DNA from: Acidimicrobiales bacterium
Lineage (GTDB): Bacteria > Actinomycetota > Acidimicrobiia > Acidimicrobiales > MedAcidi-G1
Direction of reading: 5' to 3'
Length of the DNA: 64,000 nt
Assembly (NCBI GenBank): GCA_029245675.1
Contig: JAQWOV010000026.1
Coordinates: forward strand, 1-64,000
Position numbers and translations under genes: made by a program. Shown here piece after piece: positions 1 to 3,816 of the stretch (position 1 is the stretch's first letter; every line of letters starts with the position of its first letter). The notes below the pieces were generated by a model that was given only the letters and a program-made list of their open reading frames with translations, did not search any database and was not told the origin of the DNA.

Positions 1-485
1 GCTCCGGTGAAATTCACATCTAAGAGGATCGCGGAGGTGAATTTCGCTTCTCTAAGATTTGCTCCAGTAAAATTTGCATTATAAAGATTCGCGTTTTTAA
101 AGTCTGCCTTGCTTAGATTTTTTCCTTCAAAATTTCTTTGACGAAGGTCCTTCCTTACTTGGACTTTCACCCTTACCGCGTTGGCTTTCTTCCTTGCTGC
201 TTTGCGTTTCTTCCTTGGCACGATTTTCTTGCTTGCCTCGGCTTTCTTCCTTGCTTCAATTTTCTTCCCTGCCGCGGCTTCGACTTTCTTCCTTGCTTCT
301 CTTTTCTTCCTTACTTCAGCAGCTTTCTTCTTTGACAGTTTCTTTTTCTTTGAAAAATATTCTTCACTTTGTTGTTTGGATTCAAAGGTGCGATTTCCCT
401 GGTTTTTCTTCTTGCCTGATCCATAGCCAATAGTACGAGTGACTCGCACCGCACGAGGTCTGCTCTTCTTGCTCCCCCCGGACAT
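1..485 (-). CDS. Lysine-rich, pentapeptide-repeat protein (3' end cut by window edge)
   Basis: The minus-strand frame opens at an ATG (483-485) and stays open to base 1, giving about 161 residues, so the C-terminus lies outside the window. Residues about 25-110 are extremely basic: runs of KKK and repeated RKK-x-EA units, with almost no hydrophobic residues, similar in composition to histone H1-like or nucleoid-binding tails. From about residue 118 the sequence becomes a pentapeptide repeat, A(N/D)LxxAxF, which in known families folds as a right-handed beta helix. Function is unknown. A DNA- or RNA-binding tail joined to a beta-helix is an inference. A 16-bp palindrome lies 18 bp upstream and no strong ribosome site is seen. 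The gene sits on the island side of a tRNA-Arg remnant. Confidence 0.75.
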   Translation of the reverse strand, partial: MSGGSKKSRPRAVRVTRTIGYGSGKKKNQGNRTFESKQQSEEYFSKKKKLSKKKAAEVRKKREARKKVEAAAGKKIEARKKAEASKKIVPRKKRKAARKKANAVRVKVQVRKDLRQRNFEGKNLSKADFKNANLYNANFTGANLREAKFTSAILLDVNFTG

Positions 486-502
486 TAAACTAAACGCTCA
501 CT

Positions 503-518
503 AGAGAATCGATTCTCT
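503..518. promoter_or_regulatory. 16-bp perfect palindrome upstream of the lysine-rich gene
   Basis: The bases AGAGAATCGATTCTCT form a perfect inverted repeat with no spacer, ending 18 bp before the start codon of the gene at 1-485. The position and symmetry fit a dimeric repressor site, but no regulator is identified. The rest of 486-798 holds no open reading frame that I can support. Confidence 0.4.
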
Positions 519-612
519 TGACTTCGTTAAGTAGTTGAATCTTGTAGCCGTTAACTTCCACATTTTGAACTTAACACGCTGTTTCTTTAGCTCCCATTCC
601 GTGACACTAAAA

Positions 613-650
613 ACAGCCACGCAGACAGCCACGCAGACAGCCACGCACGT
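613..650. repeat. 12-bp tandem repeat, nearly three copies
   Basis: The unit AGCCACGCAGAC occurs twice exactly (615-626, 627-638) and a third time with a changed end (639-650). It is followed by several GTG(G)ACAC words and by CACGTG at 648-653. The block lies between the island-like gene at 1-485 and a tRNA-Arg remnant. Closely spaced direct repeats in that position resemble recombinase arm sites, which is inference only. Confidence 0.6.
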
Positions 651-740
651 GACACACGTGGACACACCTAGACACAATCATGTGGTAAACAAGTAAGTAA
701 ATACATATAAAAACCTTGACTGGAGATCCTATGAAGATAC

Positions 741-785
741 TTACGGATCAGAAGGTTGGGGGTTCGATTCCCTCCAAGCGCGCTA
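741..785 (+). pseudogene. 3' remnant of tRNA-Arg(ACG), probable attachment-site scar
   Basis: The stretch begins in what would be the anticodon loop (ACG anticodon). It continues through the 3' anticodon strand, variable loop, a complete T arm (GGGGG, loop TTCGATT, CCCTC), the 3' acceptor strand CAAGCGC, discriminator G, and CTA in place of CCA. The matching 5' acceptor strand (GCGCTTG) and the D arm are absent upstream, so this is not a functional tRNA. A copy limited to the part from the anticodon loop to the 3' end is what tyrosine-recombinase integration into tRNA genes leaves behind. The intact gene is not in this window. Confidence 0.7.
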
Positions 786-798
786 AATTTTTAAGAGA

Positions 799-2058
799 TC
801 AATTTGTTTCTAAATAAGTCTCAGATTGAGTGTGTGCGGTATCTACTAAATCTCCGAGAGCAACACTCATATCAACGATATGTAGCCCCCATTGAGGAGT
901 TAACTCACCACCTACAGAATCTGTGCGTGGATCACTAGGGTCAGAAAGAAACTCAACTGAGAAGTAGCTAAAAGTTCCGTTATCAATGCATTCCCCAAGA
1001 ATAAAATCTGGATAAGTAATCCAAGGGGTTGTAACTTCCGCGGTTGATTCAGGAGATAAACGTTTTTGTCCTTCAGAAGGGAAAAAAGGATTAAGTATTG
1101 CTTTTCCTTCTTCATTAAAGCTTGCCGGATTCGTACACAACGCTGGGGTGCCGTCTTGTCTGGCTCTACCAAAATAAGAGTCGTTTGGTGGTGGTTTATT
1201 TTCGTCAAAAGTTACATATGCGAGTACGCATCCAATTTCATTTTTTTCTTTACAGGCAGGAATAGTTTTGAAATCTTTTCCCTCGGCAGCAATTGAGCCA
1301 CCAATAAGATGTGCAGAAATTAGGCGTTCACGAAGCTCAGGGTTTTGATCAATTTCTTCTACAAGTAAGCGTCGCAACATGGATGTTCCTTGAGAATGCC
1401 CAATCAGAATAAACCCCCGTCCACTATTTGCAGTCGTGATGTAATGCTTGAAAGCATCAAGAACATCTGCATAAGCAATTTCATAAGTGTTTACCCCTTC
1501 AGGTACTTCAATTGCTCCAAGAAGTGAAGGAATGGTATTTTGTCGATATATCGGTGCGTAAACATCACAAACTTCGGTATAACGGGAAGCTTGAGCCCAC
1601 ACAGTATTAATCTCCTGTGTTTCATCAGGTATCAAATCACTATTAGGTGTTCTATCTCCGCTTGTCGTGGGGTAAATATAAAAACAGTCAACTTCTGGAT
1701 TTAAAGCTTTTTCAAATGGGACCACTTCAAGTGTCCCATCGGCGTAAATGGCTGTAGCGGTTTGGTCACGACCACAAACATCTTCTGGCTTCCCAGGCCA
1801 GCACAACCAAACTTCTTGGTCGTTATATAAATCACTTATATAACCTGCATAAGGCACAACTGTCGTTGTTGTTGGTGCACTAGTGGTTGTTGGTGCACTA
1901 GTGGTTGTTGGTGCGCTAGTAGTTGTGGTCGGTGCATTGGTCGGTGTTGTTGGAAGAGCAGTAGTTGTTGAAACAGTTTCTGTCTCAGAATTTTTTGAAC
2001 AACTTGAAAGCACTAAACAAAAAACAATAAAAGAAGAAATAAAACCTTTTTTTCTCAT
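799..2058 (-). CDS. DUF3089 alpha/beta-hydrolase lipoprotein
   Basis: This 419-residue protein has an N-terminal lipoprotein signal with lipobox LVLSSC, then a Thr/Pro-rich linker (about residues 28-68, repeats of TTTSAP). The body matches the DUF3089 family: an FYIYPTTS strand and the nucleophile elbow GHSQG near residue 220, typical of serine hydrolases. It is presumably tethered to the outer face of the membrane. The substrate is unknown; family members are often called lysophospholipase-like, which this sequence alone cannot confirm. It is a single gene, transcribed in the same direction as pheA upstream and ending next to the tRNA-Arg remnant. The linker is encoded by an 18-bp minisatellite. 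Confidence 0.85.
   Translation of the reverse strand: MRKKGFISSFIVFCLVLSSCSKNSETETVSTTTALPTTPTNAPTTTTSAPTTTSAPTTTSAPTTTTVVPYAGYISDLYNDQEVWLCWPGKPEDVCGRDQTATAIYADGTLEVVPFEKALNPEVDCFYIYPTTSGDRTPNSDLIPDETQEINTVWAQASRYTEVCDVYAPIYRQNTIPSLLGAIEVPEGVNTYEIAYADVLDAFKHYITTANSGRGFILIGHSQGTSMLRRLLVEEIDQNPELRERLISAHLIGGSIAAEGKDFKTIPACKEKNEIGCVLAYVTFDENKPPPNDSYFGRARQDGTPALCTNPASFNEEGKAILNPFFPSEGQKRLSPESTAEVTTPWITYPDFILGECIDNGTFSYFSVEFLSDPSDPRTDSVGGELTPQWGLHIVDMSVALGDLVDTAHTQSETYLETN
1868..1921. repeat. 18-bp coding minisatellite, three copies
   Basis: The unit GTTGTTGGTGCACTAGTG occurs at 1868-1885, 1886-1903 and, with two changes, 1904-1921. On the coding (minus) strand it specifies a six-residue Thr-Ser-Ala-Pro repeat in the linker of the DUF3089 lipoprotein. 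Because 18 is a multiple of three, gain or loss of copies would change linker length without breaking the frame. Confidence 0.8.
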
Positions 2059-2090: not shown

Positions 2091-3050
2091 CTACTCAGGT
2101 AACTGGTTACGTAAATCTGTTAACCAATCTTGAGCTTCTTGAGAAGCATTTGAAGCAGCTTCACGAATATCTTTATCTTGTCCGTCGCTACTTCCAGAAT
2201 CAGTTGGGTATGAACCTAAAAACTTAACTTGTCCGTGTTTTATATGTAAAACACGAAGACAATCAGCTACTAGTTCATCAGCAATATGACCTTCAATATC
2301 AATTAGAAAGCAATAATCTCCAAGCGCCTGTTTCGTGGGCCGAGATTCTAAACGGGTCAGATTAATGGTTCTGGCCGCGAATTCTTGCAAGATCCCTAAC
2401 AAACTTCCCGGTCGATTAGCACGCTGAAAAATAATTAATGAAGTTTTGTCATGGCCTGTAGCTGCTGGGATACCTTCTTTAGCCACTAAAACAAATCGTG
2501 TCTGATTCTCTGGATGATCTTCAATATCTTCAGCCAAAATATTGAGCCCATAAACTTCTGCCGCGCGAGTAGAACCGATTGTTGCAATATTTAAAGCTTT
2601 ATTCTCTGCTAAATGTTGCGCCGCTTCAGCTGTTGAGTTAGCAGCGCGATGAATAGCATTTGGCAAATTATCAGCCAACCATTGACGACATTGAGCAGTT
2701 GCATGAGGGAAAGAAACGACCTCTTCAATGTCGGCTAAAGCCACATCATAATTAACCAAAAGATTCATTTGAACAGAAATAACAACTTCTCGTTGTATAA
2801 GAACATTTGTTTCAAAAGTCAAAGTATCTTGCGTAATATTTACACTGCCTTCAATTGAATTTTCAATTGCAACAAAGCCAAGATCAGATCTACCATCAGA
2901 AACACAATGTAAAACTTCAGGAATTGAAGTTAAAGGATTCAGATCGCAAATACCTAGGTCTTTTTGGGTAAGCAAAGCTTGATCGGTAAAAGTACCGAGC
3001 GGTCCAAGAAATGACAGAACTGTTGTGGCTGAAGGTGTGTTATTACTCAC
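2091..3050 (-). CDS. pheA: Prephenate dehydratase
   Basis: The enzyme converts prephenate to phenylpyruvate in phenylalanine biosynthesis. I chose the GTG at 3048-3050 (319 residues) because the catalytic domain begins right after it (FLGPLGTFTDQA near residue 14), and longer starts would run through larB on the other strand. The TRF motif, essential in this family, is at about 184-186. An ACT domain starts near residue 204 with the ESRP motif at about 235, so feedback regulation by phenylalanine is expected. The C-terminus carries a short acidic Ser/Asp-rich extension. It is transcribed divergently from larB with only 19 bp between the two start codons. Confidence 0.9.
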   Translation of the reverse strand: MSNNTPSATTVLSFLGPLGTFTDQALLTQKDLGICDLNPLTSIPEVLHCVSDGRSDLGFVAIENSIEGSVNITQDTLTFETNVLIQREVVISVQMNLLVNYDVALADIEEVVSFPHATAQCRQWLADNLPNAIHRAANSTAEAAQHLAENKALNIATIGSTRAAEVYGLNILAEDIEDHPENQTRFVLVAKEGIPAATGHDKTSLIIFQRANRPGSLLGILQEFAARTINLTRLESRPTKQALGDYCFLIDIEGHIADELVADCLRVLHIKHGQVKFLGSYPTDSGSSDGQDKDIREAASNASQEAQDWLTDLRNQLPE

Positions 3051-3069
3051 AATAGGTAAGGATAGTGCT

Positions 3070-3816
3070 GTGGATGCCAACGACCTGCAGAATTTAATAA
3101 ACGATGTTGCTTCGGGAGCACTTGACCCTGATGCTGCAGTACGCCAATTACGTAATCTTCCTTTTGCCGATATTGGTACAGCACGCATAGATCACCATCG
3201 AGCATTGCGTCAAGGGCTGCCAGAAGCAGTATTTGGCCCAGGTAAAACCCCAGAAGATGTCTCGTTAATTGTGGATGAATTACTTACAAATGGAACAGGT
3301 CCTGTCGTTTTGACTCGTGCGAATAAAGAACAAATTTCTGCAGCACTTTCTATTGCTTCACATGGAAAAGTTATAAATCAGACAGTTGTGTGGCGGCCTA
3401 ATCAAACCCGCACTGAAAATGTTCTTGTTGCTACTGCCGGAACAGCTGATTTACCTGTTGCGGATGAATGCGCAGCTGTACTCTGGGCACACGGTGTAGA
3501 AGCGAATCGTTTAACTGATGTCGGTGTAGCGGGCATTCATCGATTATTAGCCGACCTTGAAACTCTCTATGATGCTGATGCAATAGTTGTCGTGGCTGGA
3601 ATGGAAGGAGCGTTGGCAAGCGTCGTGGGAGGATTAACTTCTGTACCTGTTGTTGCAGTTCCAACCAGTGTCGGTTATGGGGCTTCATTAGATGGAGTTA
3701 CCGCCTTACTTGGAATGCTTGCCTCTTGTGCTTCCGGGATTACCGTTACTGGTATTGATAATGGCTTTGGTGCTGCTTGTGCTGTGCTTCGACAGATTGG
3801 GCTAGAAAAAAAATGA
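3070..3816 (+). CDS. larB: LarB, pyridinium-3,5-biscarboxylic acid mononucleotide synthase
   Basis: LarB carboxylates and hydrolyses nicotinic acid adenine dinucleotide in the first step of nickel-pincer nucleotide cofactor synthesis. The C-terminal half is homologous to PurE-type AIR carboxylase. Seen here: the N-terminal RIDHHRALRQGLPE motif, then GTADLPVADE and PVVAVPTSVGYGAS, all characteristic. I chose the GTG at 3070 (248 residues) because it has AAGGA eight bases upstream and avoids overlap with pheA; a GTG at 3025 is also open. The stop overlaps the larC start as ATGA, so the two are co-translated. Confidence 0.88.
   Translation: MDANDLQNLINDVASGALDPDAAVRQLRNLPFADIGTARIDHHRALRQGLPEAVFGPGKTPEDVSLIVDELLTNGTGPVVLTRANKEQISAALSIASHGKVINQTVVWRPNQTRTENVLVATAGTADLPVADECAAVLWAHGVEANRLTDVGVAGIHRLLADLETLYDADAIVVVAGMEGALASVVGGLTSVPVVAVPTSVGYGASLDGVTALLGMLASCASGITVTGIDNGFGAACAVLRQIGLEKK

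What the first reader, a model, noticed from the sequence alone, without database searches (positions are those of the whole stretch)
741..785. tRNA-Arg(ACG) 3' fragment marking a likely integration boundary
The fragment matches a tRNA from the anticodon loop to the 3' end but lacks the 5' half. This is the usual signature of an att site used by tyrosine recombinases. The tRNA involved is the sole expected reader of CGU/CGC/CGA, which TadA (38658) modifies. The left 0.7 kb would then be the end of an integrated or decayed element.
Basis: partly seen in the sequence, partly recalled or inferred. Interest (0 to 1): 0.6.

Follow-up and report, generated by a model that had tools for sequence, protein, structure and literature searches.

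The report
tRNA-Arg attachment site with split excisionase
The half tRNA gene is a real scar where a mobile DNA element joined the chromosome, and the DNA beside it seems to hold the start of the element's excision gene, which would be cut off from the rest of that gene whenever the element is inserted.

Summary
Window 741-783 is 43/43 identical to the 3' part, from the anticodon loop on, of the intact tRNA-Arg(ACG) gene on another contig (C25) of the same genome. An excisionase-type HTH gene and a tyrosine integrase lie directly 3' of that gene. The same junction recurs: 18 of 61 genomes of the order (one ambiguous) carry a separate tRNA-Arg 3' fragment starting at or next to the anticodon loop. 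The attachment-site reading stands.

Beyond the finding: the DNA left of the core (611-740) is an element arm shared by eight copies in seven genomes. Each copy has a ribosome-binding site and an ATG/GTG exactly four codons before the core, in one frame. At C25, and in relative G006, that frame runs through the tRNA 3' half into the HTH gene. The attachment core therefore appears to lie inside the 5' coding part of the excisionase gene. Integration would separate the start codon (left here) from the gene body and integrase (at C25); excision would rejoin them. This is inferred from sequence only.

Unresolved: pairing of this end with C25, the contig's inverted second copy, and the origin of the left 0.6 kb. 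Similar switches are known; this layout is a new variant.

The parts
741..783 (+). attachment core: 3' part of tRNA-Arg(ACG), anticodon loop to 3' end
   Evidence: 43/43 identical to G000:C25 tRNA-Arg; no complete tRNA called in the window there
611..740 (+). element arm next to the core, with tandem AGCCACGCAGAC repeats at its left end (possible integrase arm sites, inferred)
   Evidence: shared with the other C8 end (151 of 152 incl. core) and with G001, G014, G026, G028, G031 and SP351; 611-635 is 25/25 identical to C25:1252-1276 beside the integrase
721..725 (+). candidate ribosome-binding site TGGAG
   Evidence: present before the start codon in 8 of 8 arm copies
731..817 (+). start codon of the presumed split excisionase gene and its frame through the core; in the window it ends after 28 codons in chromosomal DNA
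   Evidence: ATG/GTG exactly four codons before the core ACG in 8 of 8 arm copies; controls 0 of 13 and 1 of 19
3..485 (-). pentapeptide-repeat protein gene, runs off the contig; cargo or rearranged chromosome
   Evidence: PF00805 1.2e-16; 420-577 is 88.6% identical to a pentapeptide gene start in G007:C1
799..2058 (-). DUF3089 gene, chromosomal neighbour on the right
   Evidence: PF11288 2.3e-51; next to prephenate dehydratase also in G002 and G004
2091..3188 (-). prephenate dehydratase, chromosomal neighbour
   Evidence: PF00800 1.7e-54

Best explanation
The block is an attR-type junction of a tyrosine-recombinase element that targets the anticodon loop of tRNA-Arg(ACG) (well supported by sequence). 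The arm to its left (611-740) belongs to the element (well supported). In the element's circular form the core would lie inside the 5' coding part of an excisionase-type HTH gene: the ribosome-binding site and start codon are on this arm, the frame runs through the tRNA 3' half, and the HTH domain and the overlapping integrase gene follow on the other arm (the two half-frames are shown; the joined gene is inferred). Integration would leave the start codon here and the body of the gene, without that start, behind the tRNA, lowering or altering HTH and integrase synthesis; excision would rejoin them and favour re-integration (inferred).
For: Identity of core and intact tRNA and the 14-mer control. 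HTH_17 / TIGR01764 gene and integrase directly 3' of the intact tRNA in G000 and G006. Arm shared by 8 copies in 7 genomes. SD plus ATG/GTG four codons before the core in 8 of 8 copies, with RBS spacing varying by 1 nt while the start-to-core distance stays 12 nt; 0 of 13 and 1 of 19 in controls. Frame open through tRNA end to HTH in G000 and G006, other frames closed by 3-5 stops. N-terminal residues beyond the tRNA conserved between G000 and G006. Recurrent fragments in 18 of 61 genomes.
Against: No assembled circular form; window arm and C25 arm are on different contigs. Only two copies (G000, G006) keep the HTH gene. The open frame alone is weak: 7.7% and 4.2% of surrogates are also open. 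Codon-position counts beyond the tRNA are mixed. Internal ATG codons (codon 51 in G000, 85 in G006) could start a short HTH protein. The flank just beyond the tRNA is also conserved in genomes where no HTH gene follows, so its conservation is not proof of coding. No promoter shown: one weak match, 0.8 expected. No such frame in viral contigs with the core.
Confidence: 0.55

Rival explanations
1. Plain attachment scar: a tRNA 3' fragment left by integration. The arm is conserved because the recombinase binds it; its start codon and the open frame into the HTH gene are coincidental, and the HTH gene starts at an internal codon.
For: All attachment-site evidence fits without a split gene; internal starts exist; surrogates are open in 4-8%; the flank beyond the tRNA is conserved also without a following HTH gene.
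Against: SD plus start at the same distance in 8 of 8 arms, with ATG/GTG exchange, against 0 of 13 and 1 of 19 controls; frame open in both genomes that keep the HTH gene.
Confidence: 0.38
2. The window copy is not the partner of the C25 integrase but the end of a second, integrase-less islet at another place (a pentapeptide-gene islet), or it sits where it does through inversion or mis-join between the two inverted arms at the ends of C8. (This concerns which copy it is; it can hold together with either reading above.)
For: Two inverted arm-core copies end C8; G007 has the pentapeptide genes at the DUF983 locus next to a 17-nt core-like stretch; relatives with integrase-less islets are common.
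Against: No read data; G004 also has a pentapeptide-gene start near DUF3089, so a window-like order may be old.
Confidence: 0.5
3. A decayed duplicate of the tRNA-Arg gene, or chance similarity, without any mobile element.
For: None found.
Against: 43/43 identity, recurrent breakpoint at the anticodon loop in 18 of 61 genomes, integrase beside the intact gene, shared arm.
Confidence: 0.02

Closest known systems
Integration-dependent immunity of mycobacteriophage BPs and relatives (PMC4557955, abstract read)
   Same: attP lies inside a regulator gene upstream of the integrase, so integration changes the product; phage Grizzly and others carry a similar tRNA-Arg core (33 bp, 90.9%) in the immunity repressor gene.
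   Different: There the core is antisense and near the 3' end of a repressor, and integration removes a C-terminal tag; here it is sense, at the 5' end of an excisionase-type gene, and integration removes the start codon.
Curtobacterium phage Barebow gene 19
   Same: tRNA-Arg core (40 bp, 87.5%) inside an HTH gene upstream of a tyrosine integrase.
   Different: Core antisense and in the C-terminal part of the gene.
State-dependent int promoter switching of ICEKp1, ICEclc, ICEEc1 (PMC13023037, abstract and section 24 read)
   Same: The integrated element has int behind a tRNA gene; in the excised form a promoter from the other end drives int and favours integration.
   Different: Described there is a promoter switch; here the start codon and reading frame too would be split. 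Promoter and conjugation genes are not shown here.
CIME, cis-mobilizable element (PMC5704250, passages read)
   Same: Ten islets in relatives have tRNA-Arg and fragment at their two ends; 9 of 10 have no integrase found.
   Different: Mobilisation not shown; for the window copy the left end is unknown.

Membership tests
tRNA-targeting tyrosine-recombinase integrative element | direct repeat of the tRNA 3' part at the element end | tested here: met
   43/43 identical
tRNA-targeting tyrosine-recombinase integrative element | tyrosine integrase next to the intact tRNA | tested here: met
   C25: PF14659 6.4e-9; PF00589 1.6e-5, just under its cut-off, C-terminal part missing at the contig end
tRNA-targeting tyrosine-recombinase integrative element | both ends on one DNA molecule, excision to a circle | not testable with these tools
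   C25 and C8 end without overlap
CIME | attL and attR kept, integration genes lost | tested here: inconclusive
   met in 9 of 10 relatives' islets, two of them with N gaps; for the window copy the other end is unknown
BPs-type integration-dependent switch | attP inside the 3' coding end of a repressor gene | tested here: not met
   core is at the 5' end of an excisionase-type gene, sense strand
ICEKp1-type int promoter switch | promoter at the far element end reading towards attP | tested here: inconclusive
   RBS and start codon found; promoter scan at chance level
AICE (actinomycete ICE) | tra and rep genes between the att sites | not tested
   interior of the G000 element is not assembled; a 2011 survey found no AICE in Acidimicrobidae (PMC3218068, passages)

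The most novel reading that the evidence does not exclude
A family of tRNA-Arg(ACG)-targeted elements in Acidimicrobiales uses the conserved tRNA 3' half as coding sequence: attP is embedded in the N-terminal codons of the excisionase gene, so that the crossover itself cuts the gene from its ribosome-binding site and start codon and switches xis-int expression with the integration state. The integrase-less islets keep the start-bearing arm and may be mobilised through it.
Probability: 0.45. Interest if true: 0.6.

Novelty: new variant of a known kind. Interest (0 to 1): 0.42.

Why it matters
Use of tRNA 3' halves as attachment sites is usually explained by conservation and stem symmetry (recalled). 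Here the same 43 bases would also be translated at the start of the element's own excision gene, coupling gene expression directly to the recombination state, and this is testable with two reporter constructs. It also gives markers (arm motif, core) to delimit many small integrase-less islets in a group of mostly uncultured Actinobacteria in which a 2011 survey found no AICEs.

Tried and rejected
Chance similarity: rejected. A degenerate full tRNA: ARAGORN and Rfam find none. The rest of the integrase, or a contig continuing C25: none. A homolog in G000 of the GH4 gene that follows DUF3089 in G004: none; of the FrhB-like gene beyond the G001 junction: none. Close integrase relatives in named genomes: none; in viral contigs only weak ones; in phages and plasmids all under 60% identity. 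The arm pattern in viral contigs: 0. Reading frames across the core in the 27 fragment or edge places of viral contigs (of 55 places): no HTH gene seen in the same frame (read by eye). Reading the second C8 copy as ordinary integration at a secondary site: not favoured, because the sequence changes inside the acceptor stem, at a 9-of-10 match (TGGAGRGAAT) with the pentapeptide gene of G007, not at the anticodon loop.

Papers: searches. In the listings of 62, 72, 73, 92 and 93 I saw no paper on an attP inside the 5' part of a xis gene; I read only the listings there, and most subscription papers are not held.

Full report
1. The observation. The window is bases 1-64000 of contig C8 (130,694 bp) of a 1.87-Mb, 33-contig genome. 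Window 741-783 is identical, 43 of 43, to the part from the anticodon loop to the 3' end of the intact tRNA-Arg(ACG) on contig C25 at 1349-1423 minus. No tRNA is called at the window block, and Rfam gives only a chance-level tmRNA fragment there. The reversed 14-mer control has 0 matches in 61 genomes, against 47 genomes with the true pattern.

2. The partner site. On C25 the order is tRNA-Ser(TGA), tRNA-Ser(GCT), tRNA-Arg(ACG). Directly 3' of tRNA-Arg lie an HTH_17 gene (L021:970-1236, PF12728 3.8e-12; TIGR01764 excisionase family 2.4e-9) and, overlapping it by 4 nt, a tyrosine integrase that runs off the contig. In relative G006 the same pair lies in the same place, again cut by the contig end (integrase 53% identical over the aligned part). 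So tRNA-Arg is occupied by an element in G000, and the window block looks like the other kind of junction. That the two belong to one copy is not shown: no contig end continues C25 at its integrase end, or C8.

3. Recurrence. In 61 genomes of the order (the window's own, 7 of its genus, 29 of other genera of its family, 24 of other families) one search gives separate hits of the tRNA-Arg 3' part that begin at or next to the anticodon loop in 18 genomes: G000 (2), G001, G007, G014, G023, G026, G028, G031, G039, G040 (2), G041 (3), G044, G045, G048, G049 (2), G052, G056, G058 (my count from the table). G045 is cut by a contig end and ambiguous; G057 was left out for that reason. ARAGORN calls no tRNA at these places. 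In nine of these genomes (G001, G014, G023, G031, G039, G041, G048, G052, G056), and in SP351 from the named collection, the fragment follows the tRNA-Arg gene on the same contig in the same orientation, spanning 0.38-7.15 kb; in G023 the gene itself is interrupted by N. Of these ten islets one (G041) holds an integrase by an HMM built from 28 integrases. G014 and G023 contain 360 and 282 N. Pfam names no recombinase among the islet proteins that I scanned (not every small ORF was scanned). In the viral collection 54 stretches hold the core at 55 places: 28 with an intact tRNA, 20 fragments, 7 at edges. That tRNA 3' halves serve as attB for tyrosine recombinases, with crossover at the anticodon loop in one class, is established (recalled).

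4. The arm. Left of the core the window shares an arm with the other end of C8 and with G001, G014 and G031. A pattern scan of 84,980 named genomes found it in five records, all labelled Acidimicrobiia, Acidimicrobiales, Acidimicrobiaceae or Candidatus Microthrix. This gives eight copies in seven genomes. Viral contigs: 0. Twelve fragments from the other families of the order have unrelated left sides (by eye), so different elements use the same tRNA site.

5. The split gene. In all eight arm copies TGGAGATCC is followed after 1-2 nt by ATG (G000 twice, G001, G014, G026) or GTG (G028, G031, SP351), and then by exactly three codons before ACG GAT CAG of the core: M-K-I-L, M-K-L-L, M-I-L-L, M-I-V-L, M-A-L-P, M-A-L-L in front of TDQKVGGS. 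An automatic test for SD plus start in that frame gives 7 of 8 (G026 fails because its contig begins 24 nt before the core), 0 of 13 for non-family fragments and 1 of 19 for viral fragments. On the other side, the frame from ACG is open at C25 for 139 codons and at G006 for 149 codons, through the HTH domain, with no start codon upstream within the tRNA. The other frames contain 4 and 3 (G000), 4 and 5 (G006) stops between tRNA end and HTH motif. First-order Markov surrogates are open in 7.7% and 4.2%. G000 and G006 conserve residues beyond the tRNA (RSEPST, SHADSH; 45% identity overall). Codon-position counts over the first 15 codons beyond the tRNA are mixed: 6, 1, 7 differences at positions 1, 2, 3 for G000-G006, but 5, 7, 7 for G000-SP351. 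The same flank is conserved in genomes without an HTH gene behind it, so it does not prove coding. In G001, SP351 and G031 the frame behind the tRNA no longer reaches an HTH gene, and in G014 it runs into N, as expected of decayed islets. I conclude, with moderate confidence, that the circular form carries one gene across the core.

6. How it would work. Circular form: arm start codon, core and HTH/xis gene joined, xis-int made, integration favoured. Integrated form: the start codon stays at attR and reads into chromosomal DNA (28 codons in the window, 21 at the other C8 end), while xis-int lies behind the tRNA without that start. A short HTH protein from an internal ATG (codon 51 or 85), or a transcript from the tRNA promoter, remains possible, and some integrase must still be made for excision. 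The promoter is not shown (one weak match, 0.8 expected).

7. What lies around the window copy. To the right, DUF3089 and prephenate dehydratase are neighbours also in G002 and G004. In G004 DUF3089 is followed by a GH4 gene and others without a fragment; the G002 contig ends within about 220 bases. In G001, G006, G012, G014 and G031 the tRNA cluster abuts prephenate dehydratase by its tRNA-Ser(TGA) end, the opposite orientation. At the DUF983 locus (the other end of C8), G001 and G006 have no fragment, G004 and G002 keep a tRNA-Arg-like stretch of 22 nt (21 matched) between DUF983 and the next gene, and G007 has two pentapeptide genes plus a 17-nt stretch there, before a gene that is MTTB by Pfam. 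G000 has the first 44 codons of the first pentapeptide gene, then core and arm to the contig end. The start of the pentapeptide gene at window 420-577 resembles the second pentapeptide gene of G007 (88.6% of 158 nt). So the left 0.6 kb of the window may belong to the DUF983 locus, through an inversion between the inverted arms, a second element copy, or a mis-join in the 152-nt repeat. Many contig ends of this assembly overlap by exactly 141 nt, but the C8 ends and the integrase end of C25 have no such neighbour; reads are needed.

8. Known relatives. Same principle, other layout: BPs-type phages, whose similar tRNA-Arg core lies antisense in the 3' end of the repressor gene, and ICEs that switch the int promoter on circularisation. 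Islets without integrase match the definition of CIMEs. Tandem elements in tRNA-Arg genes are known in Streptomyces avermitilis (PMC3218068, passages).

Noticed in passing
G000:C8:130541-130694 (L020): Inverted second copy of arm and core (36 nt) at the far contig end, joined to the first 44 codons of a pentapeptide gene at a 9-of-10 nt match.
   Followed up: partly
G004:C6 (L238:8938-8959), G002:C129 (L239:605-626), G007:C1 (L234:11739-11755): 17-22 nt tRNA-Arg core scars between the DUF983 gene and the next gene, absent in G001 and G006: a possible secondary attachment site.
   Followed up: partly
G007:C20:224-271 (L088): tRNA-Arg 3' fragment with 16 nt of the same right-hand flank as G000:C25, next to a MazG-domain gene and the 3' end of pentapeptide repeats.
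   Followed up: partly
G041:C32:62418-83197 (L090, L213): Apparent tandem array: intact tRNA-Arg, integrase, core fragment, second integrase, further core fragment about 17 kb on.
   Followed up: partly
L329 (Curtobacterium phage Barebow): tRNA-Arg core inside an HTH gene upstream of a tyrosine integrase, antisense and C-terminal, like BPs-type phages.
   Followed up: partly
G000:C8:75962-76057 (L022:11962-12057): ARAGORN calls a tRNA-SeC(TCA) on the same contig; selenoprotein genes were not looked for.
   Followed up: no
G000:C23:4132-5049 (L119): A second tyrosine integrase in the genome, 29% identical to the one on C25.
   Followed up: no
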